DNA from: a virus | DNA length: 64,000 bases | IMG/VR virus record: IMGVR_UViG_3300043411_000921 | Coordinates: 177,400 to 241,399 of that record | Reading direction: 5' to 3' (one strand) | In this document: piece after piece, positions 18,901-63,962 of the stretch | Numbering within the stretch: the stretch's first letter is position 1 | Layout: each line of letters starts with the position of its first letter | Notes under the pieces: generated by a model | The model's database searches: none | The model's input: the letters and a program-made list of their open reading frames with translations, nothing else | What the model was told of the DNA's origin: nothing | Program-made: the position numbers and the translations under genes

Positions 18901-19013
18901 GGTCCTTTTGTGGTTGGGGAAATTACGCAAGCAGGCACGCCGCTTGGTGTTCGGGTTGTTGGTTGACTAATGTCGAATTCTCTAGCTGAAACACCTGGGC
19001 TCAAAAGTGCCAT
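15987..19013 (-). CDS. tail sheath protein 1 (gp18-like)
   Basis: 1008 aa against 659 in T4 gp18. It polymerises around the tube and contracts at infection. The N-terminus (SAREFDISQPTTRTPSGVPA then VISPTTKGPAFVPV) and C-terminus (VNVRRLLITIRREVRQVATR) are the conserved sheath ends; the extra length is in central insertions likely on the outer surface. A second, related sheath gene lies just upstream. A TATTTA box and a terminator precede it, so it is a separate late transcript. Confidence 0.85.
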   Translation of the reverse strand: MALLSPGVSAREFDISQPTTRTPSGVPACVISPTTKGPAFVPVLTTTLSDYVSVFGGMNANTPLGYLSAREWFGNTSVPMIQVRVLGAGDGTARAADGTVARAGFVVGAEQISGSDGAIGANIYANYGGVTGSVYMLGAFMSESAGSTFLSDAGLQNSTNAAPIVRGVLFAPSGVVLRLSSAAQPSPAPGSGLVATESTFNGGFSGSIQLANGQQNFVLLLNGHKGTDTRYPNVITASFDPQAINYFPSVLNTDPLKTDQAGHLLYAHFDVFSALAVPTGSGIIHPESGSAYGTVENVAFLVPGSGSNATHTSNVGSTITPNFEGFADRYSTALSPWVISQGFGGNPINLFRFHHLSDGEAGNGDVKISITNIQPGNSTQPYGTFTVLVKRMNSLDSEGALETYTNLSLDPTNPRYIAKIIGTQHTFFNFDTDLDSQKVVTTGDYPVNSRFVRVEVSDAVDSGEADPSSIPFGFRGPQHLVTQGSSSLYNLGHGDLLDPGYPYFATSSIGLVPLFSASQPPIPMRLNLKKSNASSGVDTFLFWGVQFQNVTSLTDPNGSTQFNSGLVGYSKYFPSFSDATNMQPAVYANTGEASTVDNGILDCDVFNKNLFSLEKVKVVTGSGDRPDTSITSLLSWSYVRGGNISADETTKTRALRVSDLNQNAAVQSLAKFSFYLERGFDGVRIFNQDTRYLKNAAVAQEIARTDRGLVNGPTVQSYLKATDIVSDVNEVSIQLLTVPGIRVRYVTDTVVNAMEQDRFDCFYIMDPEQYDVNGISITGSYESVNVSQTAQAFVSRGVNSSFAAAYFPDTNIALPNGTVVEKVPPSVAVLGVYAKNDTVGQPFNAPAGFTRGTLSNVTDFAVALNQANADALYVARLNLLLSKQGVGPVVWGQKTLLNKDSLLNRVNVRRLLITIRREVRQVATRFLFEPARESTLAAFNAAVQPILARYQAAGGVERYKVAIDTTTTTQADLDNKTMKGKIFLIPTTSLEFFAIDFVVTNRDNFVGG

Positions 19014-19120: not shown

Positions 19121-22100
19121 CTATCCCAGAGTCACTCCCGAAGGAAGAAGCACAAAGTCCATTGTGATGTATTCTACTGCTCTCGTTGGAAGAACCCTGA
19201 TTTGAGCATTCATTCTGTTGCTGTTCACGTCGTCTGCGGTGTTGTTTCTTCCATCACAGATAACAGCGAATTGCTCGATGCCCTGTTGGAGTTGGATGGC
19301 AGAGAGAACCAAGCTGGCTTCGCTGACGAAACGTTGGCGAAGGGCTGGAGTGTTTTGTTCAAACAACATCCTGTTGGCGATCTGAACCACTTGACGCTTC
19401 AACTCAAGAATCATTCTCTTGACGTTGATGCTCTCCAGAGCACTCGTTGCTTGTTGCAGAGTGTTCTGAGAGAAGAAGACGTAGTTTGCGCCAGGGAATT
19501 TGACGATTGGGTTGATATTAGCATCAAACAGGGTGTTTCTATCTCCTTGATTGACTCTGACCGAAGTCAAGACAACGAAGGAAAGGGAGCCACGATCAAA
19601 TCCTGCTGGGGCGAACCAGGGGAATTTCACTCTGTCGTTGTAGCTCAAAGCGGCAACCGCAGCGATGCTTGCTGGGACTGTGACTCTGCGACGGTTCACT
19701 GAGTCATCCATCACAATGTTGGGGAAGTAAGCACCAGCGGCATTGTTGTCCAAAGCCCTTGTGATAAAGGCGTTTGCTGTGTTCTTGATAGAAGCGTGTC
19801 TTGTTGTTTCGCCATCAAAGATACGCAGGCTGTTTTGGTCGTATGGTTGAATATCCATTGGGTAGAAGGAAAGGCCATAAGCCAAGTTCTTTTCAAGGGC
19901 ATAGTTCGTGACCAACGGATCTCTTTGTCCTGGGATTGCCAAGATGTTGTTGTTGGCGATGTTCGGGTTGGTTGCAATGTCGATTGCGGTTCTGTATGCA
20001 ACCACACAACTGTTCGCTGTCGAAACCCCAGTATAGTTTCTTCCAGACACAACGGGGACCGTGCTAAAAAGTGCTCCTGGGCTAATGTAGTTGCTGTTGG
20101 CCACCCCATAGGTTCCCGCCAAGCCAACCTCTGTTGAGGTGGACCTGTCGGTAAATCTGGTTGCTTGTTTGTCGAAGATGTTGACACCATCCCAGCCACC
20201 TTGCATAAAGGTTGTGAACTTGGTGTATGGAGAGTAGTTGTTGAACACAACAGCACTCCCACTGTTCAGCAGAGAGGCAAAGGTCAAGCGGTCGCTGAAG
20301 TTCGTTGCTGCGTAGGTGTTTGAATCAATTGCTGCGTTGCGGAGATAAGCAGCCTCTCTCAGTAGCGTTGCGGGAGATCCAGTCGTCACATCGGTCATGC
20401 TTGTTACATTCAATGCAACCTTCGCAAGAGAGAATTTGTTGTTGTTCAACAGATCGGATTGAGAACCCGTTGTCAAAACTCCCTGTTTTTCAATTCCAGC
20501 AAACTTTGTATAGGAAGCGATCACTGGGTTGATTTCTGTGTTCGTGTTAACGTTCAAAACGTCGTTATTATTTCTTTCGAATTTGACACCCCAAAACAAT
20601 CTTCCATCAAACACGGTTTGAGATGATGGAGCACCGAACTCGGTACCTGAAGCTGTTAGTTGGTTTCTGGTCATCGTGAATCTAAAAGGGACAGGGGGAA
20701 CGATAGAACCAGAAAGCAATGCCCCTCCAGGAACCAAACTGGAGGAAACACCGGAAATCATTGAACGACTGCGAGAGACATTGTTGATTGCATCGGTGAG
20801 AGAAACGTTTGTCAGAGGCATTTGATGCCCGCGGAAACCAAATGGAAGAGCTTTTGCAGGAACTTCTCCAGCATCCAGTTGTGAGCTTGGGATGACACGA
20901 ATAAGGCGGCTACGATTCCCATACTTTCCTTCAACAACCAACCCCCTGTCGTCAGAATCAACCGCATCAAAGTTGAACTTGGTGCGTTTGTCTCCAATCA
21001 CCTTGATAATGTAATTGTCGCTGTTTGGATCCAAACTGAGGTTGCTGAACTGTTCAAGAATCTGTGGATCTGTGTCGGAATCATTGAAAGCACGAACCAT
21101 CAAAGAGAAGGTTCCATAGTTTGTTGATGGGTTTGTTGAAGCCAGCAAGTTTGCAATGCTGATCTTGTATTTGTCATTGGCATAAGCACCATCATCCCTA
21201 CTCTCAACCTGAAACAAATCATATTCAACATTGCCGAATGGTTGAGAAATGAAGAATGGAGTTTTCGGTGCTGTGTACCTTGTGTTAAACAGGCCAAAGG
21301 CTTCGCCAAAAGTGGTTCCAAATTGATTTGTGTATTGAGAGCCTGAGAGGAGAGCAACCGTTGCAGTTGAGTTGCTTGCTGACAAAGCAGCGACTTCGTT
21401 ATCAACGGCATAGTCCAAATACAGCAAGTGTTTCTTGGAATCGAAGTCGAGAGGGTTTGTGTTCAGGATCTTTCCAACATACTTCTCGCTGTTTGGATCA
21501 AGAGAAGCTGAGTAAATTCTCAACCCAGCAAAGCCATCATCAGAACCAAACGTGTTTCCAGCAGAGGAAGAAAGAACAAGCTTAAACAGCCCATTCATCA
21601 AGCCTTCTGTTCCGACTTGAGCAGCTTCCCCAGTGCCAAGACCGCTTGCGTAGGCAGAAGGATTGTAAACACCATTGGAATCAGAAGCACCACTCAAAAC
21701 CATAAACCTGGAATCAGGAGTTGTGAAAAGTGTTGCTCTGACAAGGTTTACTGTTTCACTAATTCCGGGAGTCAACCCCAAAACAGAATAACTGTCGTTG
21801 TTTGTGAACATCGGGAAACCAAAAGACTCGTTGGTTTGAACGTGGTGATTGGCAACAAGAAATTGAACACGACCTTGCAAAGCGCCAGATACAAATGTTG
21901 CCCCAGCACCAACCACTTTTGTTCCGGCGTTGACAACCGTTCCCTGTGTTTCAGTCAATGAAATGTCAACAGAACTACTATTTGCTCCGCAGCCCAAAAC
22001 GCGAACATAGTTTGCCGATGCAACTTCAGATCCTTTTCCTTCGAAGAACTTTTGAACGGCAAAGGTTGCTGGGTATTTTGCATCAACGGTACCGAACTTG

Positions 22101-22264
22101 TTTTCAAAGTCCAAGTAACTGCCGACGCTAATGGGGACGAATGCTGGGCCTTTTTCGGCAGGGCCAATAATTGTGGCTGGGGTGCCTCCAACGGGGGTTG
22201 TCCTCTCTGTAAGGTCGAACTCCCGGTCGAAGTAGTTTGGAGCCTTGAATACTGTTTCTGGCAT
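19121..22264 (-). CDS. tail sheath protein 2 (gp18-like paralog)
   Basis: 1047 aa. Same architecture as the neighbouring sheath: an N-terminal FDREFDLTERTTPVGGTPA then IIGPAEKGPAFVPIS, large variable middle, and C-terminal ESINVKRMILELKRQVVQIA with a final EYITMDFVL. The two proteins align best at their ends. Both reading frames are intact. Whether they co-assemble or serve in different tail zones is unknown. A TAGTTA box lies 37 bases upstream. Confidence 0.85.
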   Translation of the reverse strand: MPETVFKAPNYFDREFDLTERTTPVGGTPATIIGPAEKGPAFVPISVGSYLDFENKFGTVDAKYPATFAVQKFFEGKGSEVASANYVRVLGCGANSSSVDISLTETQGTVVNAGTKVVGAGATFVSGALQGRVQFLVANHHVQTNESFGFPMFTNNDSYSVLGLTPGISETVNLVRATLFTTPDSRFMVLSGASDSNGVYNPSAYASGLGTGEAAQVGTEGLMNGLFKLVLSSSAGNTFGSDDGFAGLRIYSASLDPNSEKYVGKILNTNPLDFDSKKHLLYLDYAVDNEVAALSASNSTATVALLSGSQYTNQFGTTFGEAFGLFNTRYTAPKTPFFISQPFGNVEYDLFQVESRDDGAYANDKYKISIANLLASTNPSTNYGTFSLMVRAFNDSDTDPQILEQFSNLSLDPNSDNYIIKVIGDKRTKFNFDAVDSDDRGLVVEGKYGNRSRLIRVIPSSQLDAGEVPAKALPFGFRGHQMPLTNVSLTDAINNVSRSRSMISGVSSSLVPGGALLSGSIVPPVPFRFTMTRNQLTASGTEFGAPSSQTVFDGRLFWGVKFERNNNDVLNVNTNTEINPVIASYTKFAGIEKQGVLTTGSQSDLLNNNKFSLAKVALNVTSMTDVTTGSPATLLREAAYLRNAAIDSNTYAATNFSDRLTFASLLNSGSAVVFNNYSPYTKFTTFMQGGWDGVNIFDKQATRFTDRSTSTEVGLAGTYGVANSNYISPGALFSTVPVVSGRNYTGVSTANSCVVAYRTAIDIATNPNIANNNILAIPGQRDPLVTNYALEKNLAYGLSFYPMDIQPYDQNSLRIFDGETTRHASIKNTANAFITRALDNNAAGAYFPNIVMDDSVNRRRVTVPASIAAVAALSYNDRVKFPWFAPAGFDRGSLSFVVLTSVRVNQGDRNTLFDANINPIVKFPGANYVFFSQNTLQQATSALESINVKRMILELKRQVVQIANRMLFEQNTPALRQRFVSEASLVLSAIQLQQGIEQFAVICDGRNNTADDVNSNRMNAQIRVLPTRAVEYITMDFVLLPSGVTLG

Positions 22265-39600: not shown

Positions 39601-40142
39601 GTTACTCCATAGGCCAAATCATCTATGTTTTGTCTGAAAAGACCCAAGTGGTTCTACCAGGAATAGTTTGTGAAGAAATCAATCACAAAACACTGGATGG
39701 AATCAAAACGTCTTACCGCGTTGCTATTGGCCCAGCAAACAAACAACGGGTTGTTGATCTTACGACGGTTGATGGTGAGGTCTATGGAGATTTGCAAGAA
39801 GTCAGGAATGTTCTCATTGGACGCTTGACAGCTTTCGTTGACAACCTTTGCAACACCACAAACGAACGTGTTCAGCAATGGTATGGACAAAACAACGGAC
39901 AAAAATCTCAGCCTGCAACGCCAAATGGCAAGCTGGATCCAAGTGATCTCATCAATGAAGTCGATTCCAGCCCGGCACAACCACAACAACAGCAATCTGT
40001 TCAGCAGCCGCGAACTGTCCCAGCACATCATGCGAATGCAGCGGGAAGGTACGCAGATCCAGAACTCTTTTCAAGGGAGTTTGTGGACAATGATGGCGTC
40101 GTGAAGAAAATTCAAATCAACGTTCCAGGATTCCAAGAGTAA
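39597..40142 (+). CDS. hypothetical protein, 181 aa
   Basis: Not recognised. The first ~80 residues look like an SH3-type barrel (SIGQIIYVLSEKTQVVLPGI); a Gln/Pro-rich linker follows, then a C-terminal FVDNDGVVKKIQINVPGF. Many small proteins here share the barrel-like opening. The stop overlaps the chaperonin ATG (TAATG). Confidence 0.55.
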   Translation: MSYSIGQIIYVLSEKTQVVLPGIVCEEINHKTLDGIKTSYRVAIGPANKQRVVDLTTVDGEVYGDLQEVRNVLIGRLTAFVDNLCNTTNERVQQWYGQNNGQKSQPATPNGKLDPSDLINEVDSSPAQPQQQQSVQQPRTVPAHHANAAGRYADPELFSREFVDNDGVVKKIQINVPGFQE

Positions 40143-41881
40143 TGTCAACATCAACAACAGCAACACCTGAAACCTTTCCAGTGATGGAAGTTACGTTTGG
40201 GCAAGAAGGTTTGAAACAGATTCTTGAAGGAGCAGAAGTTCTTTACAAGGCTGTGAAATCGACAATGGGGCCTTCAGGCAACAACGTCATCATTGACAAC
40301 GGACAGACAGCCCCTTTCATAACAAAAGACGGTGTAACTGTCGCAAAAAGCATTCGTCTTCGTTCAAAGATTCCCAGCATTGGTGCTGAACTCATCAAAG
40401 AGATTGCTGGGAAAACAAACGAAAACGTCGGGGACGGAACCACGACTTCTGTGGTTTTAGGTTATTCCCTTCTCTTCCAAGGCAACAAGGTTATTTCCGC
40501 TGGACACTCTGCTGTTGAAGTGAAACGTGGAATGGATCTTGCAACCGCAAAGGTTATTGAATGGTTGAAGGAGCACGCAACTCAAGTCAACGACCCAGAA
40601 CAAATTGTAAATGTTGGAACCATTTCAGCAAATGGTGATCGCTCTATTGGGGAACTTCTTTCCGAAGCAATCTCAAAGGTTGGACAGGATGGCATCATCA
40701 CCATTGAACCAGCTAAATCCGTTAAGACAACTTTGGATGTTGTTGAAGGTTTGCAGTTTGAGTCTGGATTCGTCTCCCCTTACTTCGTCACAAACCAAGA
40801 AAAGCTCACCGCTGAACTAAATGATCCTTTTGTGTTGATCACCAACAGGAAGATTTCCTCTCTCCAAGAAATCCTCCCAGTGCTGGAGTTGACAGCAAAC
40901 ACCAATAAACCCCTGTTGATTATTGCTGACGAGATTGAAGGGGAAGCTCTTCATACGTTGCTTGTAAACAAAATGAAGGGAGTTGTTTTCTCCTGTGCGG
41001 TCAAAGCTCCTTCTTATGGAGAAAACCGAACAGATATTCTCTCAGACATTGCTTTGGTGACTGGAGGGAAGGTCTTTGACTCTTCTTCTGAAAAACAAAT
41101 TCGTCAAGCAAACCTTCACGACCTTGGAAAATGCAAGAAGGTTATTGTTTCGAAGGGAACAACAACACTTGTTGTGGATAACAAGGAGAAGAAGAAAGAG
41201 ATTGATGAGCGTGCAGAACAACTTAGGGCTCTTCTGAATTCTCATGCTGGATTGGATGAACTCAAGAGAGACAACACGAAGAAAAGACTTGCCAAACTTT
41301 CTGGTGGTATTGCCGTCATCAAGGTTGGTGGTTCAACCGAAGTCGAAATCTTTGAGAAGAAAGATCGTGTTGATGACGCTTTGAACGCAACGGTTGCTGC
41401 CGTTCAAGAAGGTATTCTTCCAGGAGGAGGAACAGCATTGTTCTATGCTGCTGAATGGCTCCAGAAAGAAATGACAACAAACGAAGATTTCTTGAAGTTG
41501 ACCGATGATGAATTGGCTGGAGTTAGAGTGGTGATTGAAGCTGCTCGGCAACCCCTGAAAGTTATCGTTGAGAACACAGGAAAAAGCCCAGACGTTGTTA
41601 TGAATGAACTTCGGAACTATGACAACCGCAAGGCAACAAAGCTTCTTGAAGAGATTTCTGGAAAGACTTCAAAATCAATTGAGGTTGTGGATGTTTCGAT
41701 CAAGGAGTCTTTGGCTGGAAGGTTGCGTCAGGGATATGATGCTTACAACCACGTCTATGGAGACATGATTGAAAAAGGCATCATTGATCCTTTAAAGGTT
41801 GAAAGAAGTGCGTTGGAGTATGCTTGTTCGGTTGTGGGACTTCTTCTGACAACGAACGCGATTGTTGTAACTGATCAATGA
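40142..41881 (+). CDS. groEL-like: phage GroEL-type chaperonin
   Basis: 579 aa. A group I chaperonin: ring-forming ATPase that folds proteins in a closed chamber. Equatorial motifs present: VKSTMGPSGNNVII, ITKDGVTVAKSI, the nucleotide loop GDGTTTSVV, SGGIAVIKVGGSTEVE followed by KKDRVDDALNATVAAVQEGI (catalytic Asp kept) and LPGGGTAL. The apical domain includes LQFESGFVSPYF. Chaperonins occur in a few large phages, where they may fold the capsid protein. Coupled to upstream genes; a short gene that could encode a partner follows. Confidence 0.9.
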   Translation: MSTSTTATPETFPVMEVTFGQEGLKQILEGAEVLYKAVKSTMGPSGNNVIIDNGQTAPFITKDGVTVAKSIRLRSKIPSIGAELIKEIAGKTNENVGDGTTTSVVLGYSLLFQGNKVISAGHSAVEVKRGMDLATAKVIEWLKEHATQVNDPEQIVNVGTISANGDRSIGELLSEAISKVGQDGIITIEPAKSVKTTLDVVEGLQFESGFVSPYFVTNQEKLTAELNDPFVLITNRKISSLQEILPVLELTANTNKPLLIIADEIEGEALHTLLVNKMKGVVFSCAVKAPSYGENRTDILSDIALVTGGKVFDSSSEKQIRQANLHDLGKCKKVIVSKGTTTLVVDNKEKKKEIDERAEQLRALLNSHAGLDELKRDNTKKRLAKLSGGIAVIKVGGSTEVEIFEKKDRVDDALNATVAAVQEGILPGGGTALFYAAEWLQKEMTTNEDFLKLTDDELAGVRVVIEAARQPLKVIVENTGKSPDVVMNELRNYDNRKATKLLEEISGKTSKSIEVVDVSIKESLAGRLRQGYDAYNHVYGDMIEKGIIDPLKVERSALEYACSVVGLLLTTNAIVVTDQ

Positions 41882-43930: not shown

Positions 43931-46900
43931 TATTCATTGGCGCGGAGTAACGAGGCATGAAGAATATCGTCAGGTATTTTCTCGTGTGTTTGAGACTCTG
44001 AAGACAGAGATCAAGCCTGATTACATCATGATCGGTGGAGATATTTTTCACACCAAGACTCAATCAATCACACCAGAAGTCATTGATTGCATCACCTGGA
44101 TGTTTAGAAGTCTTGCTGAAGTTGCTCCGGTTTACTCCATCCTGGGAAACCACGATGGAAACCTGACCAATGAAAACAGACAAGACACAATCAGCCCAAT
44201 CATCTCAGCAATGAACAATCCCAGAGTCACTCTCTTCAAGAAGAGTGGAAATCACATCATCCCAGGAACCAATATTAACCTGTGTGTGTTTTCTCCGTTC
44301 GACGAAGCTGGCTGGAATATTGTTTCCCCAGATGAAGACCTGATTAACGTCGTGATGTTTCACGGCGCTGTAAAAGGCTGCAAGACCGATTCTGATTGGG
44401 TTATGGCCTCGGGTGAAGTGGAACTCTCAATGTTCCAACCATATGATTTTGCTCTCCTTGGAGACATCCACAAGAATCAATTTTTGGATTATCGGAGCCA
44501 CTCTGGGCCAACAAGGGACATGAAGCCCTGGATTGGTTATCCTGGTTCCCTTATCCAGCAGAATTATGGAGAAGACAGAACGAAGGGGTTTCAGGTTTGG
44601 GATATTCGGTCTAAAACTGATTGGGACGTTTCCTTTCATCCAGTTTCCAACGACTATCAATTTATCACGGTTCCTTGGACAGGGGATGTTGAATCGACTC
44701 TGGGGGAAGCCCTGATTCTTGTTGATGATAACCTGAAAAACAAACGAGTCAGAGTCTCTGGTGGTTCTTCAACCATTTTTCCTTTGCAGAAGAAACAACT
44801 TGCCGATCTTTTCAAAGAGAAGCATGGTGCTGCTGAAATCTTCTTTTCCCCAGACCCCAAGAAGGAAGCAGAGCAAGATGAAAAAAGGATTCAGAGCAAG
44901 ACAACGAGTTTGAGGAATGACCCAGAAGAACTTTGCAGGCTTTATGACACCTTCACTGAAGCAGACACCAAGTCTTCTTCTTTAAGGGAAGATCAGAAGC
45001 AAGCAGCGAAGAAATTCATTCGCTCAACACTGACGAAGGTGAGGAACCAAGAAGAATTGGAAGAGGGAGCGTCCAGGGATATTGTTTGGAGTATCAAGGG
45101 ATTGGAATGGGAGAACCTGTACCGTTATGGAGAAGACGACAACCAAATCAACTTCTCCAGACTGAATGGAATTACAGGGATCTTTTCTCCAAACAGGACT
45201 GGAAAGAGTTCTATTGTTGGAGCGTTGATGTTTGCTCTTTACAACACGACTGATCGTGGTCCTGTGAAGAGTGCTTACCTCATCAACAAAAACAAGAGCA
45301 GTGGTTCTGCCAAGGTTGTTTTCAACGTTGCTGGAGTCGATTATGAACTTGAAAGAACAGTCACAAAATCAATCAAGCGCGGCGGAGTTGTTGATGAAGA
45401 AAAAGCAGCAACAAAACTTTCTCTGAATCGAATTGACAGAGAAGGAAACAAGACCGAGTTGGTATCAGAAAATGCCGATTCCAGAACGGACACGGATAAA
45501 GTTGTTCGCAAACTCATTGGAACATCCCAAGACTTCTTGATGACTGCCTTTGCTTCTCAAGGAGGAATGAATCGCTTCATCGAAGAAGGTTCAACCCAAA
45601 GGAAAGCAATCCTCAATAGATTCTTGGACCTGGATATTTTTGAGAAGCTTCACAAGATTGCAAACGAAGAACTCCAAGCCTGCAACACCAAAGCTTCAAG
45701 TTTTTCTGGTTCTCCAAAAGATATTGAAGCTTTGGAGGAAAAAATTCATCAACTGAATGTGGAGGTAGAGCACGCACAGAGTAAGCTGGATGATAGTAAG
45801 CCAAGGAGGGACTCAGTACGTTTGTGGTTGAAAGCTCATGGATATGAGAAGCGTCTTGAGTTGAAAACCAAGATCAAGCAACTGAATTCTCTTATTCCTT
45901 CACTGGAAAGGAGTTTGGAGTTGGGGAGGGTGGAATATCAACGGCTTCTCTCCTCGCAAGACAGAGTTGCTGCCGAAATGACCTCTCTTGAGAACTCTTT
46001 GTCTTTGGTGGAGGCGGAAACTGTTCTTGCTGAGAAACTGAAAACTCTTAGACATGAGACTTCTGTACTCACTCAATTTCTTGGAGAGTTGACAGCAGCA
46101 CAAAAAGAGTTGGTAAGAAAGGAAGGTAACATCAAAAAGTTGAGTGTTGTTCCTTGTGGAACTTCCTTCCCTTCCTGCCATTACATCAAGGATGCTCACG
46201 AAGATCAAGCAACCATTCAAAAACAAAAACTGCTGGTCGATGAAGAATCCCAAGCCTATGAAACTCAAAAGGCTTTGGTCGAATCCTTGAAAAAGGAGAA
46301 CGCTGAAAAACTCTTGGAGGAGATCAAACAGAAGAAAGGAAGACTCCAGCAAATTGAAATGGAGCAAGTCAGAGTTGAAGCTGCTATCAGTAAAACCAAC
46401 TCAGAAATCTCTGCCCAAGAAATCAAACTCACTTCCTTGAAAGAAGAACTGAAACAGGTTCAAAGTGTTTTGAACAACCAAGAAGACTTGGATGAGAAGA
46501 TTGCCGAAGAGCAAGAACTGGAACAAGAGTGCAAGGTTTGTGAGGACAAACTCAAAACACTCTGGCTCCAGCTTGGAGCAGCTACGAACAAACTAGAGCA
46601 CGCCAAACAAGATGCAACCAAAATTGCTGAGATTCTGGAAGAGCAGCTTGTTTATGACAGCATTGTTCGAGCCTTCTCCAAAACAGGAATCCCAGCCTTT
46701 GTGCTGAAAAACAAACTTCCAGCGATCAATGTCCAGTTGGATGGGATTTTGGGAGGAGTGGTCCCTTTCAGGCTTCAACTGGAAACTGAAATCGGGAGCA
46801 ATGCCTTGGATGTTTTCATAGAGGACAAGGACAGCAGGAGGGTTATTGAGCTTGCTTCGGGCATGGAGAAGATGATTGCCTCTCTTGCTCTTAGAGTGGC

Positions 46901-47129
46901 ACTGATAAACCTCTCAAGCCTGCCAAGGCCCGATCTGTTTATCATCGACGAATCGTTTGGTTCTCTGGACTCTGAAAACTGTGCAAGGGTCATCGAACTG
47001 CTCCAGTCAATCAAAAGCAGATTCAAAACTGTTCTCATTATCACTCACGTTGACGAAATCAAGGAAGCAGCAACCACGATTTTGACAATCAACAACAACG
47101 GAGCAACAAGTTCTATTTCCTTCCCGTGA
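43905..47129 (+). CDS. fused SbcD-SbcC recombination nuclease (gp47-gp46 fusion)
   Basis: 1074 aa in one intact frame. The first ~340 residues are an Mre11/SbcD phosphoesterase: SDIHW (Asp9, His11), IGGDIFH, LGNHDG, VVMFHGAV and LLGDIHK bind two metals. Then a Rad50/SbcC ATPase: Walker A GIFSPNRTGKSSIVG (about residue 426), a long coiled coil with hook cysteines (VPCGTSFPSCHY, CxxxxxxC instead of CxxC), the ABC signature ELASGMEKMIASLALR and Walker B LFIIDESFGSLD. In T4 the subunits are separate genes. It resects DNA ends for recombination-driven replication. Confidence 0.9.
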   Translation: MPKIAFLSDIHWRGVTRHEEYRQVFSRVFETLKTEIKPDYIMIGGDIFHTKTQSITPEVIDCITWMFRSLAEVAPVYSILGNHDGNLTNENRQDTISPIISAMNNPRVTLFKKSGNHIIPGTNINLCVFSPFDEAGWNIVSPDEDLINVVMFHGAVKGCKTDSDWVMASGEVELSMFQPYDFALLGDIHKNQFLDYRSHSGPTRDMKPWIGYPGSLIQQNYGEDRTKGFQVWDIRSKTDWDVSFHPVSNDYQFITVPWTGDVESTLGEALILVDDNLKNKRVRVSGGSSTIFPLQKKQLADLFKEKHGAAEIFFSPDPKKEAEQDEKRIQSKTTSLRNDPEELCRLYDTFTEADTKSSSLREDQKQAAKKFIRSTLTKVRNQEELEEGASRDIVWSIKGLEWENLYRYGEDDNQINFSRLNGITGIFSPNRTGKSSIVGALMFALYNTTDRGPVKSAYLINKNKSSGSAKVVFNVAGVDYELERTVTKSIKRGGVVDEEKAATKLSLNRIDREGNKTELVSENADSRTDTDKVVRKLIGTSQDFLMTAFASQGGMNRFIEEGSTQRKAILNRFLDLDIFEKLHKIANEELQACNTKASSFSGSPKDIEALEEKIHQLNVEVEHAQSKLDDSKPRRDSVRLWLKAHGYEKRLELKTKIKQLNSLIPSLERSLELGRVEYQRLLSSQDRVAAEMTSLENSLSLVEAETVLAEKLKTLRHETSVLTQFLGELTAAQKELVRKEGNIKKLSVVPCGTSFPSCHYIKDAHEDQATIQKQKLLVDEESQAYETQKALVESLKKENAEKLLEEIKQKKGRLQQIEMEQVRVEAAISKTNSEISAQEIKLTSLKEELKQVQSVLNNQEDLDEKIAEEQELEQECKVCEDKLKTLWLQLGAATNKLEHAKQDATKIAEILEEQLVYDSIVRAFSKTGIPAFVLKNKLPAINVQLDGILGGVVPFRLQLETEIGSNALDVFIEDKDSRRVIELASGMEKMIASLALRVALINLSSLPRPDLFIIDESFGSLDSENCARVIELLQSIKSRFKTVLIITHVDEIKEAATTILTINNNGATSSISFP

Positions 47130-47138
47130 AGAAACTCC

Positions 47139-47167
47139 TTGACCGAGAATATCTGCCCTGGTAGGGT
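47139..47167 (+). promoter_or_regulatory. early-type promoter TTGACC-17-TAGGGT
   Basis: TTGACC (47139-47144) and TAGGGT (47162-47167), 17 bases apart, identical boxes to the 15125 promoter. Here a leader of about 40 bases with AAGGA precedes the ATG at 47217. Confidence 0.65.
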
Positions 47168-47216
47168 TCAAGGTGTCTCGGTCACTTCAACTCCTACAAA
47201 AAGGAACAGAAACAAA

Positions 47217-47486
47217 ATGGCAGTGAATGGTAAGCAGAATCTCGTGGAGCAGGTATATCGTTTTGTCGTCCGTGCATCCCAATCTCACTGGGACTCGAAC
47301 GATCACTTCAACGATCTTGAGGCAGTCAATCTTCTCAAGACCTTTGCTGATCAGTTGACGGCAAGGGAATACCAATCCCTTATGCTCGGATGGTCTCAGA
47401 TCCGAAATGATGAGGGCGATGCAACCATGAGAGATGCTCTCGACGCTATCACAGAGCGTCTGCAAAACGGCTACGCCACCAACTGA
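47217..47486 (+). CDS. hypothetical early protein, 89 aa
   Basis: Not recognised. The ATG at 47217 is chosen because the earlier TTG at 47139 is part of the -35 box. Charged, helical (QSLMLGWSQIRNDEGDATMR). Own early promoter. Confidence 0.6.
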   Translation: MAVNGKQNLVEQVYRFVVRASQSHWDSNDHFNDLEAVNLLKTFADQLTAREYQSLMLGWSQIRNDEGDATMRDALDAITERLQNGYATN

Positions 47487-47595
47487 TATTCCCGTCCCCA
47501 CTAAACCCTAACCCAAAACATATAAAAGGACAAGAATCCTCTTCTTGATCCTGTTTTGGCATTTCCGATAACATCAACAGAAAGAAGAAAAGAAA

Positions 47596-48075
47596 ATGCT
47601 TGAATTGGTTCTGGCCTTGATTACCCTGTTTCCTCATTCCCCATCCAGGGATTGTTTGATTGCACGTCGCTATCAAATTGCTTCTGTGTTGGAAGCATCC
47701 CAAGAGAGATTTCCTGAAATGCCACCAGAACTTGTTTTGGCGGTTGGCTTCATGGAAACACACAACGGATGTGATCGAAATGAGGGAGGAAATTGGGGTG
47801 CTCCCATTTCCAATCAACAACGTCACACAGCAGGAAGACCGATCCAGGCTGCTGCGTCTCTGTGGACATCTTATCAACGTTGCAATCATTCGTGGGAAGC
47901 TGCAACTCGACGATTTCGCACTGGACTTTGTTCTCCGTCTGCGGTAGGAACTCCTTATTCCAGGACTGCTACCAGACTCGCCAGTCGTATCCAAGCCGAA
48001 GTCATTCGCAATCAAGAAAACTCTTCTCTTGTTTGTCGCATTGATCCATCGCTTGAACGCTGTCATGCCTGTTAG
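47596..48075 (+). CDS. exported lytic transglycosylase-like protein
   Basis: 159 aa. A short hydrophobic N-terminus (LELVLALITLF) could be an export signal. The pattern PPELVLAVGFMETHNG with Glu about residue 55, then NWGAPISNQQRHT and IQAAASLWTSY, resembles SLT/lysozyme-fold muramidases. Six Cys suggest disulfides in the periplasm. It might act at infection or with the amidase; activity is inferred. A weak hairpin with AAGAA/TTCTT arms lies in the preceding gap. Confidence 0.55.
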   Translation: MLELVLALITLFPHSPSRDCLIARRYQIASVLEASQERFPEMPPELVLAVGFMETHNGCDRNEGGNWGAPISNQQRHTAGRPIQAAASLWTSYQRCNHSWEAATRRFRTGLCSPSAVGTPYSRTATRLASRIQAEVIRNQENSSLVCRIDPSLERCHAC

Positions 48076-59044: not shown

Positions 59045-59290
59045 ATGTTCGTTGCTGAATCTCAGAGATACTATGACCACACCTTCCAGGAAAGCAAGAC
59101 GATCCTAAGAACCCAATATGACTCCCTTCTTTGCTCTCTTCTGGTTATCTTCCACAACGGCTCCCAATACCTCTATTTTTCAGTACCTCCAGAGGTTCAC
59201 CAGTCCCTCCTCGATTCCCCAAGCCCAGGAAAATTCTTCCACTCCAACATCCGAGGAAAATTCAGGCACGAACGTCAAACCAATATCTAA
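59045..59290 (+). CDS. KTSC-domain protein, 81 aa
   Basis: Almost the whole protein is a KTSC domain: LLVIFHNGSQYLYFSVPPEV followed by HQSLLDSPSPGKFFHSNIRG matches the family pattern of a strand, VPpevy helix and a knuckle near the end. KTSC domains are small modules of unknown biochemical role found on toxins, phage and bacterial proteins. A CTAGCTAGAC sequence precedes the ATG. The short TGGTTAT repeat lies in its coding sequence. Confidence 0.7.
   Translation: MFVAESQRYYDHTFQESKTILRTQYDSLLCSLLVIFHNGSQYLYFSVPPEVHQSLLDSPSPGKFFHSNIRGKFRHERQTNI
59131..59154 (+). repeat. short dispersed repeat with TGGTTAT core
   Basis: TTGCTCTCTTCTGGTTATCT continues TCCA; it encodes the LLVIFH strand of the KTSC domain. 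Confidence 0.4.
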
Positions 59291-59294
59291 CCCC

Positions 59295-59888
59295 ATGAAA
59301 CTAAGCCAAATCCTCTTCACCAACGAAAATTCTGGTGACTTTTCAGGGGCTGGAACCTTCCAAGGTGGACCATTCGGCTTTGGAAACAAACATCAACTCG
59401 CTGCACATGAACCCTGGGAAGGTCTCGAAGATCAGGAAGAAACAGATGAAGTCTTTCTCAAAGAAAGAAGTCCGTCCGACATCTTGTACCGCGATCTCCC
59501 AGGATTTCCCAGGATGAACACCTTGGCAAAACCCGTAGACCACATTCCCCATTCTCCATCAGACGAAGAGAGATACAACATCCCAGATCTCATTCCCCCA
59601 GGAAGAGATGGAGAAGCTGGAGAACACTTCGGCTTTGGACCTCTTGAAGAAGATCCAGCCGTTCTTGCTCGCCACACCGATTGGATCAAAAAAGAAACCG
59701 AGTCGGAGCACGCTGGATATACCTCCAGTGAAATTGCAACCAACTCAGTTCCAACTCATGGTGGAAGCATGGGAGTTATTGCCAAACCCATCAAGCACAC
59801 TCCTGGTCCCGTTGACATCTACAAAAAAGGTTCCGGTCCCGGTTATTCCCTCGGAGAATCTCTTCTCCTCAGCAACCTCCTCTTCTAG
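59295..59888 (+). CDS. hypothetical late protein with CTS-like start, 197 aa
   Basis: The ATG at 59295 follows the KTSC stop by 4 bases and is preferred to one at 59118, which would overlap the KTSC gene. The opening KLSQILFTNENSGDF is CTS-like but short. The body is Pro/Gly/Glu-rich with repeated GFGP/GGPFGFG pieces, probably extended. Packaging is possible. Confidence 0.5.
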   Translation: MKLSQILFTNENSGDFSGAGTFQGGPFGFGNKHQLAAHEPWEGLEDQEETDEVFLKERSPSDILYRDLPGFPRMNTLAKPVDHIPHSPSDEERYNIPDLIPPGRDGEAGEHFGFGPLEEDPAVLARHTDWIKKETESEHAGYTSSEIATNSVPTHGGSMGVIAKPIKHTPGPVDIYKKGSGPGYSLGESLLLSNLLF

Positions 59889-61044: not shown

Positions 61045-61129
61045 GGAAGAGTATCCTAATGGTAAGGAAACGGTTTGCTAAACCGTCGAGGGCTAACCCC
61101 TCTTGCGAGTTCGACTCTCGTCTCTTCCT
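61045..61129 (+). tRNA. tRNA-Ser(GCU)
   Basis: Acceptor GGAAGAG/CTCTTCC, anticodon loop TTGCTAA, long variable arm, T arm GCGAG/CTCGT-type. CCA not encoded. Confidence 0.85.
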
Positions 61130-61279
61130 CCGATGTTTTGTGTGTGGCTGTAAAATGGAACAGTTTCGCAACCCAACTGTAATGTGGGGTGTTGAAAATG
61201 TGGGCAGGAATAATAACTAAACCAACCCACCACACGAAATATCTCTCTGTCCCGGTATGCCGCCTCGTGTTTCTACATT
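61130..61279 (+). other. gap within tRNA array
   Basis: 150 bases with no tRNA I could fold. A CAGTTTCG...CAACTG imperfect hairpin is present at 61161. Nothing further seen. Confidence 0.3.
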
Positions 61280-61353
61280 CTCTCCATCGTCTAACTGGAT
61301 AAGGCTCTTGCCTTCTAAGCAAGTAATTGGGGGTTCGAATCCCTCTGGGGAGG
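61280..61353 (+). tRNA. tRNA-Arg(UCU)
   Basis: Acceptor CTCTCCA/TGGGGAG, anticodon stem CTTGC/GCAAG with loop CTTCTAA. Confidence 0.85.
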
Positions 61354-61368
61354 CTAGCAACAAAGTTC

Positions 61369-61397
61369 TTGACAAGGAAAAAGTGACAGGGTAAAAG
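61369..61397 (+). promoter_or_regulatory. early-type promoter-like TTGACA-17-TAAAAG
   Basis: Good boxes and spacing, but the -10 box touches the tRNA-Cys start, so transcription would begin inside that gene; it may serve later tRNAs. Confidence 0.35.
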
Positions 61398-61483
61398 AGA
61401 AAGTGTCCCGAGTGGAAAGGGAGCAGCCTGCAAAGCTGAAGAGGATAAAATCCTCACCAAGAGTTCGATTCTCTTCTTTCTCT
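61397..61483 (+). tRNA. tRNA-Cys(GCA) with long variable arm
   Basis: Acceptor GAGAAAG/CTTTCTC, anticodon loop CTGCAAA, T arm AAGAG/CTCTT. An extra stem GAGGATAAAATCCTC fills the variable region, giving 87 bases, a class II form not usual for tRNA-Cys. Confidence 0.75.
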
Positions 61484-61488
61484 CTGAC

Positions 61489-61562
61489 AGTAGTATAGCT
61501 TATGGGTAAAGCCTCCCACCGATAATGGGAAGAAGAAGTTTCAAGCACTTCTACTACTACCA
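61489..61562 (+). tRNA. tRNA-Ile(GAU) with C33
   Basis: Acceptor AGTAGTA/TACTACT, A then encoded CCA. Anticodon stem TCCCA/TGGGA, loop CCGATAA, so position 33 is C instead of U. Confidence 0.75.
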
Positions 61563-61564
61563 AC

Positions 61565-61635
61565 AACACCATAACTCAATGGTAGAGTTTCTGCTCGACG
61601 CGCAGAATATATCAGTTCGATTCTGATTGGTGTTA
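61565..61635 (+). tRNA. tRNA-Val(GAC) with C33
   Basis: Acceptor AACACCA/TGGTGTT, anticodon stem TCTGC/GCAGA, loop TCGACGC with C at position 33. Confidence 0.7.
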
Positions 61636-61675
61636 TCGTTTCTTCTGAATTTGCTTCATACATAAGCCTTACAAC

Positions 61676-61756
61676 GCCACTGTGGTGGAATGGCAGACAC
61701 CCCGGCTTCAAATCCCGGCGCTTTCGAGCATGTCGGTTCGACTCCGACCAGTGGCA
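61676..61756 (+). tRNA. tRNA-Leu(CAA)
   Basis: Acceptor GCCACTG/CAGTGGC, loop TTCAAAT, long variable arm. The last anticodon-stem pair is C:C. Confidence 0.75.
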
Positions 61757-61775
61757 CTCAACAACAACAAAAGTG

Positions 61776-61804
61776 TTGACAGATAGAAAGAGTTAAGTTA
61801 AAGA
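61776..61804 (+). promoter_or_regulatory. early-type promoter TTGACA-17-TAAAGA
   Basis: TTGACA (61776-61781), TAAAGA (61799-61804). The expected start at about 61811 is just ahead of tRNA-Leu(UAA). Confidence 0.5.
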
Positions 61805-61814
61805 GCAGACAGAC

Positions 61815-61902
61815 GGGATCGTGGTGGAACGGCAGACACGGCTGATTTAAGGTCAGAAGCATCATTATGATGCACTTGGGGGTTCGAGTCCCTCCGGTCC
61901 TA
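61815..61902 (+). tRNA. tRNA-Leu(UAA)
   Basis: Acceptor GGGATCG/CGGTCCT, loop TTTAAGG, long variable arm with CATCATTATGATG. Confidence 0.85.
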
Positions 61903-61936
61903 CTCAAGAAAGTCCTTGACAGACAAAACAAAAGAT

Positions 61937-62012
61937 GGCACAGTAGCCCAATCGGCAGAGGCAATGGTTCGAGAAGCCATCTAGTGAGAGTTCAAATCTC
62001 TTCTGAACCACT
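61937..62012 (+). tRNA. tRNA-like, anticodon read as GAG with C33, mismatched acceptor
   Basis: D arm GCC/GGC, anticodon stem ATGGT/GCCAT, loop TCGAGAA, T arm GAGAG/CTCTT. The acceptor GGCACAG against CTGAACC has two adjacent mismatches. GAG would read Leu codons but the variable arm is short, so its identity is doubtful. Confidence 0.5.
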
Positions 62013-62063
62013 GATAGAAACAAAGATAGAAGAAGGTAGTTAGAATAGTAACGGTAGTATCAT

Positions 62064-62141
62064 CGGGGATCGGACTCAAGGCGGGTCGCCTGTTTTGGAA
62101 ACAGGACATTCAGGCAGGTTCAATTCCTGCATCCCCGACCA
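62064..62141 (+). tRNA. tRNA-Pro(UGG)
   Basis: Acceptor CGGGGAT/ATCCCCG, A, CCA encoded. Anticodon stem CCTGT/ACAGG, loop TTTGGAA. Confidence 0.85.
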
Positions 62142-62196
62142 AACTTCTCACAGCGCCTCAGTTGTGAATCGTTCTTTGAAAACTTGTGTTGAATTA

Positions 62197-62283
62197 GGAA
62201 GGGCAAGCCGATGGGCGACGGCGCCGGTCTTGAAAACCGTGTGACCAGTAATGGTCTTGTGAGTTCGACTCTCACCCCTTCCG
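62197..62283 (+). tRNA. tRNA-Ser(UGA)
   Basis: Acceptor GGAAGGG/CCCTTCC, G73, anticodon loop CTTGAAA, long variable arm. Confidence 0.85.
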
Positions 62284-62284
62284 C

Positions 62285-62357
62285 CGCGGGATCGTCTAAC
62301 GGTTTAGGACACAGGGCTCATACCCCTGAAATCTTGGTTCGATTCCTTGTCCCGCGA
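62285..62357 (+). tRNA. tRNA-Met(CAU)
   Basis: Acceptor CGCGGGA/TCCCGCG with a paired first base, anticodon stem CAGGG/CCCTG, loop CTCATAC. Elongator Met, or Ile if the C is modified to lysidine. Confidence 0.8.
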
Positions 62358-62360
62358 TCT

Positions 62361-62446
62361 GGATCGTCTGTTCTATGGTAGAACAGTTGACTGTAAATCA
62401 ACCGGCCCAACAGGCTAAGCAAGTTCGATTCTTGTCTGATCCACCA
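62361..62446 (+). tRNA. tRNA-Tyr(GUA)
   Basis: Anticodon loop CTGTAAA, long variable arm, acceptor GGATCGT/CTGATCC, encoded CCA. Position 8 looks like C. Confidence 0.75.
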
Positions 62447-62522
62447 GACACTCTTGTATCTTCACCGGCAGAAGACGCGCTTGCCGCGCAGGGGTAGTTG
62501 GTTCAATTCCAACCAGAGTGTC
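62447..62522 (+). tRNA. tRNA-like, possibly Gly(GCC)
   Basis: GACACTC pairs with GAGTGTC at the ends; T arm GTTGG/CCAAC is good. The anticodon region GCGCTTGCCGCGC is irregular and two extra bases precede the 3' acceptor strand. Confidence 0.4.
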
Positions 62523-62573
62523 TTTTGATAATCCAACAGGAGGAGTTGCAACTTGTTCAATCCGCAAATAGGG

Positions 62574-62601
62574 TTGACTTTGCGATGGAGAGGAGTAGCT
62601 A
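62574..62601 (+). promoter_or_regulatory. early-type promoter TTGACT-16-TAGCTA
   Basis: TTGACT (62574-62579) and TAGCTA (62596-62601), upstream of tRNA-Thr. Confidence 0.4.
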
Positions 62602-62666
62602 ACCTCAAACCTCCAGGAAACTATCCTCATACCAGGACGCTGGACGAAGGAACAGTTTCCGATTTT

Positions 62667-62739
62667 GCCCACTTAGCTCAATTGGCAGAGCACCTGACCT
62701 GTAATCAGGCGGTTGTCCGTTCAACTCGGATAGTGGGCT
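62667..62739 (+). tRNA. tRNA-Thr(UGU) with C33
   Basis: Acceptor GCCCACT/AGTGGGC, anticodon stem CCTGA/TCAGG, loop CCTGTAA with C at position 33. Confidence 0.8.
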
Positions 62740-62743
62740 CCAC

Positions 62744-62814
62744 AGGTCGGTAGTGCAAAGGCAGCACACTGGTTTCCAACTCCAGAAATAAAGGTTCGAG
62801 TCCTTTCCTTCCTG
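62744..62814 (+). tRNA. tRNA-Trp(CCA) with mismatched acceptor
   Basis: Anticodon loop TTCCAAC, D stem GTGC/GCAC, T arm AAAGG/CCTTT. The acceptor AGGTCGG against CCTTCCT has two adjacent mismatches. Confidence 0.65.
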
Positions 62815-62819
62815 CCGTC

Positions 62820-62933
62820 TCTCGATGAACACAACGAGGTAAAACTTGTTGGTGAGTGGAGGTTGCAAACTCCTAAAAGTTCATGAAAACACACAGTCCC
62901 GGCAAAGATCTGTGCAATGGTATGTGTGTATTT
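62820..62933 (+). other. degenerate tRNA-like region
   Basis: ATGAAC and GTTCAT enclose a CAAC/GTTG hairpin and GGAGGTTGCAAACTCC, which looks like an anticodon arm with GCA. There is no T arm. May be a decayed tRNA. Confidence 0.3.
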
Positions 62934-63005
62934 GGTCCCATCGTCCAGTGGTTAGGACACTTGATTTTCAATCAAGGAATATGAGTTCAATTCTCATTGG
63001 GATCA
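62934..63005 (+). tRNA. tRNA-Glu(UUC)
   Basis: Acceptor GGTCCCA/TGGGATC, anticodon stem CTTGA/TCAAG, loop TTTTCAA. Confidence 0.85.
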
Positions 63006-63018
63006 TAAGTTTGAAAAT

Positions 63019-63091
63019 GTCTGTTGAGGCTGTCGGATAAAACCGCTGGGCTACGAACCCGGAATGCGTGGTTCAACTCCACGAACAGACG
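63019..63091 (+). tRNA. tRNA-Arg(ACG)
   Basis: Acceptor GTCTGTT/AACAGAC, anticodon stem CTGGG/CCCGG, loop CTACGAA. Confidence 0.85.
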
Positions 63092-63100
63092 TTAGTTTTT

Positions 63101-63171
63101 GCCCTCATCGTTCAATGGTAGGACAGCAGATTGTCGATCTGCATACAGGAGTTCCATTCTCCTTGGGGGCG
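63101..63171 (+). tRNA. tRNA-Asp(GUC)
   Basis: Acceptor GCCCTCA/TGGGGGC, anticodon stem GCAGA/TCTGC, loop TTGTCGA, G73. Confidence 0.85.
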
Positions 63172-63564
63172 CTTAGGTTTCTTCTGGTTGGAATGGTAGT
63201 CGTAGGGCAATTTCCTAGTAGTCACCCCAAAACATCCGAAACACTTGTTTCGAGTTATGCAAGGGGCACGAAAAGAAAAACGGGTAGCCCCCTCAAATCC
63301 ACTTATTTGTGGGCTGTTTGAGAGAACAGAGAAAAGTGTGAGATGAAACTTCTCATCTTGAACAAAGCACCTTTTTCGAATGGTGTTGAAACACACGCAA
63401 GTTTGTTTCGCAAGCGGTGTAGGGGATATGGCCTGAAAACCATTTTGAAACCCGAGCACATTCTCCAGGTGCAGGTTCGAATCCTGCCGATGACTCCAGC
63501 CAGAAGAAATCTCTTGACTGTCTTTTCTTGGTGTGGTAGCTTAGGTCTTGTCAGTGAGTGAGAT
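63172..63564 (+). other. 393-base gap in tRNA array with tRNA-like remnant
   Basis: No intact gene seen. Near 63420-63497 an ATGG/CCAT stem with loop CCTGAAAA is followed by a good T arm (GCAGG TTCGAAT CCTGC) and an encoded CCA, but there is no matching 5' acceptor strand, so it looks like a decayed or unusual tRNA. A TTGACT-17-TAGCTT promoter-like sequence lies at 63514-63542. Confidence 0.35.
63514..63542 (+). promoter_or_regulatory. early-type promoter TTGACT-17-TAGCTT
   Basis: TTGACT (63514-63519) and TAGCTT (63537-63542), just upstream of tRNA-Gln and the following run of tRNAs. Confidence 0.45.
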
Positions 63565-63638
63565 TCGGGATTAGCTCAATGGTAGAGCGATCGGCTTTGA
63601 CCCGGTTGACGTAGGTTCGATTCCTTCATCCCGAACCA
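63565..63638 (+). tRNA. tRNA-Gln(UUG)
   Basis: Acceptor TCGGGAT/ATCCCGA, encoded CCA, anticodon stem ATCGG/CCGGT, loop CTTTGAC. Confidence 0.85.
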
Positions 63639-63639
63639 T

Positions 63640-63712
63640 GAATCCATAGCTCAATTGGCAGAGCATGACTCTCTTAAAGTCGAGGTTTCGAGTTCGACTC
63701 TCGATGGATTCA
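63640..63712 (+). tRNA. tRNA-Lys(CUU)
   Basis: Acceptor GAATCCA/TGGATTC, anticodon loop CTCTTAA, T arm TCGAG/CTCGA. Confidence 0.85.
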
Positions 63713-63734
63713 CTTGATAGTTGTTTGTATGAAT

Positions 63735-63807
63735 GGAACCATAGCTCAGTTGGTAGAGCGTTGGCCTGAAGAGCCAAGCGTCGAAGGTTCGACCCCTTCT
63801 GGTTCCA
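63735..63807 (+). tRNA. tRNA-Phe(GAA)
   Basis: Acceptor GGAACCA/TGGTTCC, anticodon stem TTGGC/GCCAA, loop CTGAAGA. Confidence 0.9.
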
Positions 63808-63815
63808 CTTTGTTT

Positions 63816-63890
63816 GCAGCAATAGCTCAATGGTAGAGTTCCTCTTTTCCAAAGAGGGTGTTGTGGGTTCGAATCCCATTTGCTGCTCCA
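63816..63890 (+). tRNA. tRNA-Gly(UCC)
   Basis: Acceptor GCAGCAA/TTGCTGC, encoded CCA, anticodon stem CCTCT/AGAGG, loop TTTCCAA. Confidence 0.9.
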
Positions 63891-63893
63891 TGA

Positions 63894-63962
63894 TAAGCCA
63901 TAGCTCAATGGTAGAGTTCCGCCGCGAAGGCGGAGATACGGGTTCGAATCCCGTTGGTTTTA
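63894..63962 (+). tRNA. tRNA-like with irregular anticodon loop
   Basis: D arm GCTC/GAGT-type and T arm ACGGG/CCCGT are standard. The anticodon region TCCGCCGCGAAGGCGGA folds with either a 5-base loop or a 7-base loop CGCGAAG (CGA, G33), so identity is unclear. Confidence 0.5.

What the first reader, a model, noticed from the sequence alone, without database searches (positions are those of the whole stretch)
61489..62739. Four tRNAs with C instead of U at position 33
The anticodon loops CCGATAA (Ile), TCGACGC (Val), TCGAGAA (GAG) and CCTGTAA (Thr) have C33, while all other clear tRNAs in the array have U33. U33 is nearly universal because it makes the U-turn. Perfect stems leave no other register. 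These tRNAs could be edited, resist anticodon-loop nucleases, or have altered decoding.
Basis: seen in the sequence. Interest (0 to 1): 0.6.

Follow-up and report, generated by a model that had tools for sequence, protein, structure and literature searches.

The report
Phage tRNAs with C at position 33
Four transfer RNAs of a large virus of bacteria carry C where almost every tRNA has U beside the anticodon; this is real, and it recurs in many unrelated phages, mostly in the tRNAs for isoleucine (anticodon GAU) and valine (GAC), so it looks like a tolerated, co-adapted tRNA variant and not an error.

Summary
Confirmed: tRNAs Ile(GAU), Val(GAC), Leu(GAG) and Thr(UGU) have C33; 17 of 22 ARAGORN tRNAs in the array have U33. 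One more, called Ser(CGA) at 63894, also lacks U33 (G33, or a 5-nt loop). Not an error and not unique. In IMG/VR contigs sampled without regard to base 33, C33 occurs in 19/83 Ile(GAU), 26/72 Val(GAC), 1/78 Thr(UGU) and 52/2316 of the other tRNAs. Cultured phages carry C33 Ile(GAU): T5-like phages of Klebsiella, Vibrio, Salmonella and E. coli, and others of Cronobacter, Caulobacter, Pseudomonas and Dinoroseobacter. None of the chromosomal Ile(GAU) genes listed in a Pseudomonadota sample has it. C33 tRNAs have intact anticodon stems and co-vary with pair 31-39 (Ile) and base 38 (Val); this window's Ile and Val show the same companions. C33 rises with GC content. Best reading: working tRNAs in which C33 is tolerated and compensated, under relaxed selection and GC-biased drift, with possible side effects (no U33-A37 pair, less t6A37). 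Nuclease evasion is open and untested. Editing gets little support: 7 of 10 complete C33 phage genomes lack a PF00383 deaminase. Leu(GAG) is irregular and may be degenerate. I found no published description of the pattern.

The parts
61489..61562 (+). tRNA-Ile(GAU), C33 at 61520, A31-U39, CCA encoded
   Evidence: ARAGORN and Rfam 55.1 bits; U12-A23, C29-G41, A37, A38 present
61565..61635 (+). tRNA-Val(GAC), C33 at 61596, U32.C38
   Evidence: Rfam 61.2 bits; the six nearest tRNAs in the fetched set are all C33 Val(GAC)
61937..62011 (+). tRNA-Leu(GAG), C33 at 61970; irregular: two acceptor mismatches, short variable loop
62667..62742 (+). tRNA-Thr(UGU), C33 at 62699
   Evidence: Rfam 61.5 bits; most similar tRNAs, in related phages (85%), have U33
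61045..63962 (+). tRNA array of 22 ARAGORN genes, close to the contig end at 64000

Best explanation
The genes are phage tRNAs in which U33 has been replaced by C33 without loss of the tRNA fold (least certain for Leu). Shown: C33 recurs in phage tRNAs with strong anticodon preference (Ile GAU, Val GAC), on intact anticodon stems, with companion changes (A31-U39 in Ile; base 38 in Val), and it persists through divergence in cultured phages. Inferred: C33 still allows the turn of the anticodon loop, because the contact from the 2'-OH of residue 33 to N7 of purine 35 can remain (all four have a purine at 35), while the N3-H to phosphate-36 bond is lost and neighbouring positions compensate. Inferred: because phage tRNAs supplement the host's set, selection on base 33 is relaxed, so T-to-C changes fixed by GC-biased mutation persist where the anticodon tolerates them. 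Likely side effects, not shown here: C33 cannot pair with A37, and it disfavours t6A37 in the Ile and Thr tRNAs, so these may be hypomodified and decode somewhat differently.
For: C33 in 19/83 Ile(GAU) and 26/72 Val(GAC) against 52/2316 of the other phage tRNAs; A33 or G33 in only 4/2316; Fisher P 2e-15 and 5e-23. Stems: 84% of C33 tRNAs have no mismatch, 80% of U33 tRNAs. Companion changes: A31-U39 in 23/42 C33 Ile against 12/140 U33 (P 9e-10); U38 in 11/37 C33 Val against 44/62 U33 (P 1e-4); C29-G41 in 33/42 C33 Ile against 62/140 U33. The window's Ile and Val carry these C33-type companions. C33 share rises from 1.1% (GC 35-45%) to 10.5% (GC above 55%). Changes of state on the Ile and Val trees: 35 against 53.8 shuffled, 27 against 39.3, so partly inherited and partly recurrent. 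Eleven of 13 cultured phages examined have a C33 Ile(GAU) (the sample leans to C33 because a C33 tRNA was the query); one C33 Ile region is at least 99% identical in 86 records. C33 is also in the only matching Val(GAC) of 6 Campylobacterota genomes.
Against: Drift does not explain why Val(GAC) is high at all GC levels or why C35 anticodons show 0/545. Arrays are overdispersed (168 against a simulated mean of 96, maximum 173), so some phage or host factor is at work. The purine-35 effect outside Ile(GAU) and Val(GAC) is weak (P 0.054). In yeast a U33C tRNA-Gln mutant gave the phenotype that the authors link to poor decoding (PMC3664417). Trees of 75-nt sequences are noisy. Leu(GAG) looks partly degenerate.
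Confidence: 0.5

Rival explanations
1. Nuclease evasion: C33 removes a feature that host anticodon nucleases recognise next to the wobble base, so phage tRNAs survive when host tRNAs are cut.
For: Phage anticodon-loop changes have been proposed to do this (PMC10264068). C33 is frequent in phage Ile(GAU), while no C33 is among the listed chromosomal Ile(GAU) of a Pseudomonadota sample. Overdispersion among arrays would fit a host-specific pressure.
Against: That paper does not mention position 33 in its main text. C33 also sits in chromosomal Val(GAC) of some Campylobacterota, where there is no phage tRNA to protect. No nuclease specific for these tRNAs was identified here. The GC trend points to drift.
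Confidence: 0.2
2. Escape from A37 modification: C33 cannot pair with A37 and disfavours t6A, so the loop stays open without the modification and the phage does not depend on host modification enzymes.
For: [quoted passage not shown] Ile and Thr here have the U36-A37-A38 that defines t6A substrates.
Against: Other ANN-reading phage tRNAs are not enriched: Asn 2/116, Lys(UUU) 1/80, Thr(UGU) 2/67, Met 1/157. Val(GAC), the most enriched, is not an ANN reader. In the human mitochondrial system U33C did not affect t6A (PMC7102964).
Confidence: 0.13
3. The C33 is changed to U33 in the RNA by a cytidine deaminase.
For: The phage encodes a PF00383 deaminase-like protein near an MnmA gene.
Against: Its best match is phage dCMP deaminase (phrog_174). 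Seven of 10 complete genomes of phages with C33 Ile(GAU) have no PF00383 deaminase. Editing would not explain the companion changes.
Confidence: 0.05
4. Decaying tRNA genes or sequencing error.
For: Leu(GAG) has acceptor mismatches and no variable arm; the Ser(CGA)-like gene is odd.
Against: Stems of C33 tRNAs are as intact as those of U33 tRNAs. The same C33 loops occur in many independent assemblies and isolates. Ile, Val and Thr score well above the Rfam cut-off.
Confidence: 0.12

Closest known systems
Phage tRNAs with anticodon-loop mutations (van den Berg et al. 2023, PMC10264068)
   Same: Phage tRNA arrays whose anticodon loops depart from the usual sequence
   Different: That work concerns changes at known nuclease cleavage sites, chiefly in mycobacteriophage C1 tRNAs; its main text does not mention position 33, and no nuclease is tied to the tRNAs here
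Eukaryotic initiator tRNA-Met with C33 (PMC9023262)
   Same: C33 in place of the conserved U33 in a working tRNA
   Different: These are elongator-type tRNAs with GAU, GAC, GAG and UGU anticodons in a phage
C33 tRNA-Ile(GAU) of T5-like and other cultured phages
   Same: Loop CCGATAA with A31-U39
   Different: The window's gene is divergent: no BLAST match at E 1e-3 to any tRNA fetched
Chromosomal Val(GAC) with C33 in some Campylobacterota
   Same: C33 with a changed base 38
   Different: Cellular, not phage-borne; loop TCGACAA or CCGACAC against TCGACGC here

Membership tests
Canonical bacterial elongator tRNA | Cloverleaf with a 7-nt anticodon loop | tested here: met
   Ile, Val, Thr by ARAGORN and Rfam; Leu(GAG) only in part
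Canonical bacterial elongator tRNA | U33 | tested here: not met
   C33 in all four
tRNA-Ile | U12-A23, C29-G41, A37, A38 with anticodon GAU (identity elements recalled from the E. coli literature) | tested here: met
   charging itself not testable
tRNA-Leu (bacterial, class II) | Long variable arm | tested here: not met
   5-nt variable loop at 61937-62011
Nuclease-resistant phage tRNA | Loop change that blocks cleavage by a host anticodon nuclease | not testable with these tools
   Host and nuclease unknown
C-to-U edited tRNA | Deaminase shared by phages with C33 tRNAs | tested here: not met
   PF00383 absent from 7 of 10 complete C33 phage genomes; host enzymes not tested
Eukaryotic-type initiator tRNA | CAU anticodon | tested here: not met
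   Anticodons GAU, GAC, GAG, UGU

The most novel reading that the evidence does not exclude
C33 is a selected, genetically encoded change of the anticodon loop in phage Ile(GAU) and Val(GAC) tRNAs that, with companion changes at 31-39 or 38, makes them independent of host A37 modification or invisible to host enzymes that read U33, giving phages a tRNA pool that the host cannot switch off.
Probability: 0.2. Interest if true: 0.75.

Novelty: new variant of a known kind. Interest (0 to 1): 0.5.

Why it matters
U33 is treated as nearly invariant, and exceptions in annotated genes are often put down to pseudogenes (PMC9023262 says so for eukaryotes). Here C33 is common in two phage tRNAs, tied to the anticodon and to nearby bases, and present in cultured phages. 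That makes the need for U33, and the reason phages carry tRNAs, testable in natural molecules.

Tried and rejected
The protein at 59118-59888 beside the array found no relatives in IMG/VR. BLAST of the window's Ile tRNA against phage records gave only 20-base chance matches. A rule based on t6A alone was rejected as a general explanation because other ANN-reading tRNAs are not enriched. A purine-35 rule alone is weak outside Ile(GAU) and Val(GAC). T5 itself has U33 in Ile(GAU), so its annotated amber-suppressor tests do not bear on C33. Accessions NC_005859, NC_004687 and EU826467 were not held, so the C1 mycobacteriophages of the nuclease paper were not checked. Literature searches for C33 in phage tRNAs found nothing; only open-licence papers are held.

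Full report
The window is the last 64 kb of a 241,399-bp IMG/VR virus record, a large phage with T4-like major head protein, portal and tail sheath matches and a GroEL. It ends inside a tRNA array on the + strand.

Observation. ARAGORN finds 22 tRNAs from 61045 to 63962. Reading every anticodon loop in register confirms C33 in Ile(GAU), Val(GAC), Leu(GAG) and Thr(UGU). Seventeen have U33. The last one, called Ser(CGA), has G33 in ARAGORN's register, or a 5-nt GCGAA loop. Ile, Val and Thr score 55-62 bits against Rfam's tRNA model, well over its cut-off of 29. Leu(GAG) scores 45.8 but has two acceptor mismatches, no long variable arm, and no cloverleaf as its minimum-energy fold. The minimum-energy fold of Thr also departs from the cloverleaf in the anticodon arm; this is an energy model only.

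Relatives. Ten IMG/VR contigs encode portal proteins 63-78% identical in the best segment. The tRNAs read in the regions taken from them all have U33, and none is Ile(GAU), Val(GAC) or Leu(GAG). The tRNAs most similar to the window's Thr are in these relatives, 85% identical, with U33, so C33 in Thr arose in this lineage or was lost in theirs.

Other phages. To get unbiased rates I scanned for Ile(GAU), Val(GAC) and Thr(UGU) with either base at 33. Results: Ile 19/83, Val 26/72, Thr 1/78; the other tRNAs on these loci 52/2316, with A33 or G33 in 4. Anticodons with C35 showed 0/545. Ile and Val differ from the rest at P 2e-15 and 5e-23. The patterns require a consensus D-arm, so the rates for the three target tRNAs apply to such tRNAs.

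Cultured phages. A C33 Ile(GAU) region from an IMG/VR isolate matches 86 phage records at 99% or more; those listed are Klebsiella phages. C33 Ile(GAU) is present in Klebsiella IME260 and Mineola, Vibrio River4, Brizo and JSF10, Salmonella GEC_vB_N3, Escherichia 26175IV, Cronobacter Pet-CM3-4, Dinoroseobacter DFL12phi1, Caulobacter BL57 and Pseudomonas PAK_P4; Proteus phage 1 and T5 have U33. BL57 carries both forms. Except for T5, these phages were picked from matches to a C33 query, so their share is not a rate.

Cells. A genome-contig scan also hit its limit. The C33 tRNAs there are most often Thr(GGU), Val(GAC), Ala(UGC) and Ile(GAU), some in tRNA arrays and some as single genes. In a sample of 299 Pseudomonadota genomes (the phylum of a Variovorax genome), every listed Ile(GAU) match has U33; the list was cut short. 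In Campylobacterota, 6 of 79 genomes with a match have C33 in their only matching Val(GAC). There, U33 goes with base 38 = U, and C33 with A or C.

Structure. C33 tRNAs have anticodon stems as intact as U33 tRNAs (84% against 80% without mismatch) and fewer G.U pairs. In Ile, C33 goes with A31-U39 (23/42 against 12/140) and C29-G41; in Val, with a base 38 other than U (26/37 against 18/62). The window's Ile and Val have these companions. The Ile also keeps U12-A23, C29-G41, A37 and A38.

Spread. Trees with base 33 masked need 35 changes for Ile (shuffled mean 53.8) and 27 for Val (39.3): partly inherited, partly recurrent. C33 rises with GC content, and arrays are more uneven than anticodon rates predict. 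For this window 1.14 C33 are expected and 4 seen, P about 0.013.

Mechanism. The best reading is a tolerated and compensated loop in working tRNAs, under relaxed selection and GC-biased drift. The structural account of the U-turn rests on general knowledge and is inferred. Two possible side effects come from the literature: U33-A37 pairing is what t6A prevents, and C33 is an anti-determinant for the bacterial t6A enzymes (PMC9654439), although U33C had no effect in the human mitochondrial system (PMC7102964). Nuclease evasion (PMC10264068) is possible but untested. Editing is unlikely: 7 of 10 complete C33 phage genomes lack a PF00383 deaminase, and this phage's own matches dCMP deaminase best.

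Novelty. I found no paper describing C33 in phage tRNAs in the library held, which leaves out most subscription journals. I rate it a new variant of a known kind.

Noticed in passing
G000:C1 about 46561-47616 (L628 2252-3307, - strand), outside the window: The phage encodes an MnmA-type tRNA 2-thiouridylase, above the NCBIfam equivalog cut-offs.
   Followed up: partly
63894-63962: tRNA-like gene next to Gly(UCC) with a similar D-arm; its anticodon hairpin may be a longer stem with a GCGAA loop, possibly non-decoding.
   Followed up: partly
62448-62524 and about 63400-63500: Degenerate tRNA-like stretches with T-arm sequences that ARAGORN does not call.
   Followed up: no
15987-19013 and 19121-22264, - strand: Two adjacent large tail-sheath-like proteins (1008 and 1047 aa), possibly a duplication.
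   Followed up: no
40142-41881: GroEL-like chaperonin (phrog_5725).
   Followed up: no
L316, L335, L279: Contigs assigned to Actinomycetota with many C33 tRNAs each (9 of 28, 8 of 13, 5 of 14).
   Followed up: no
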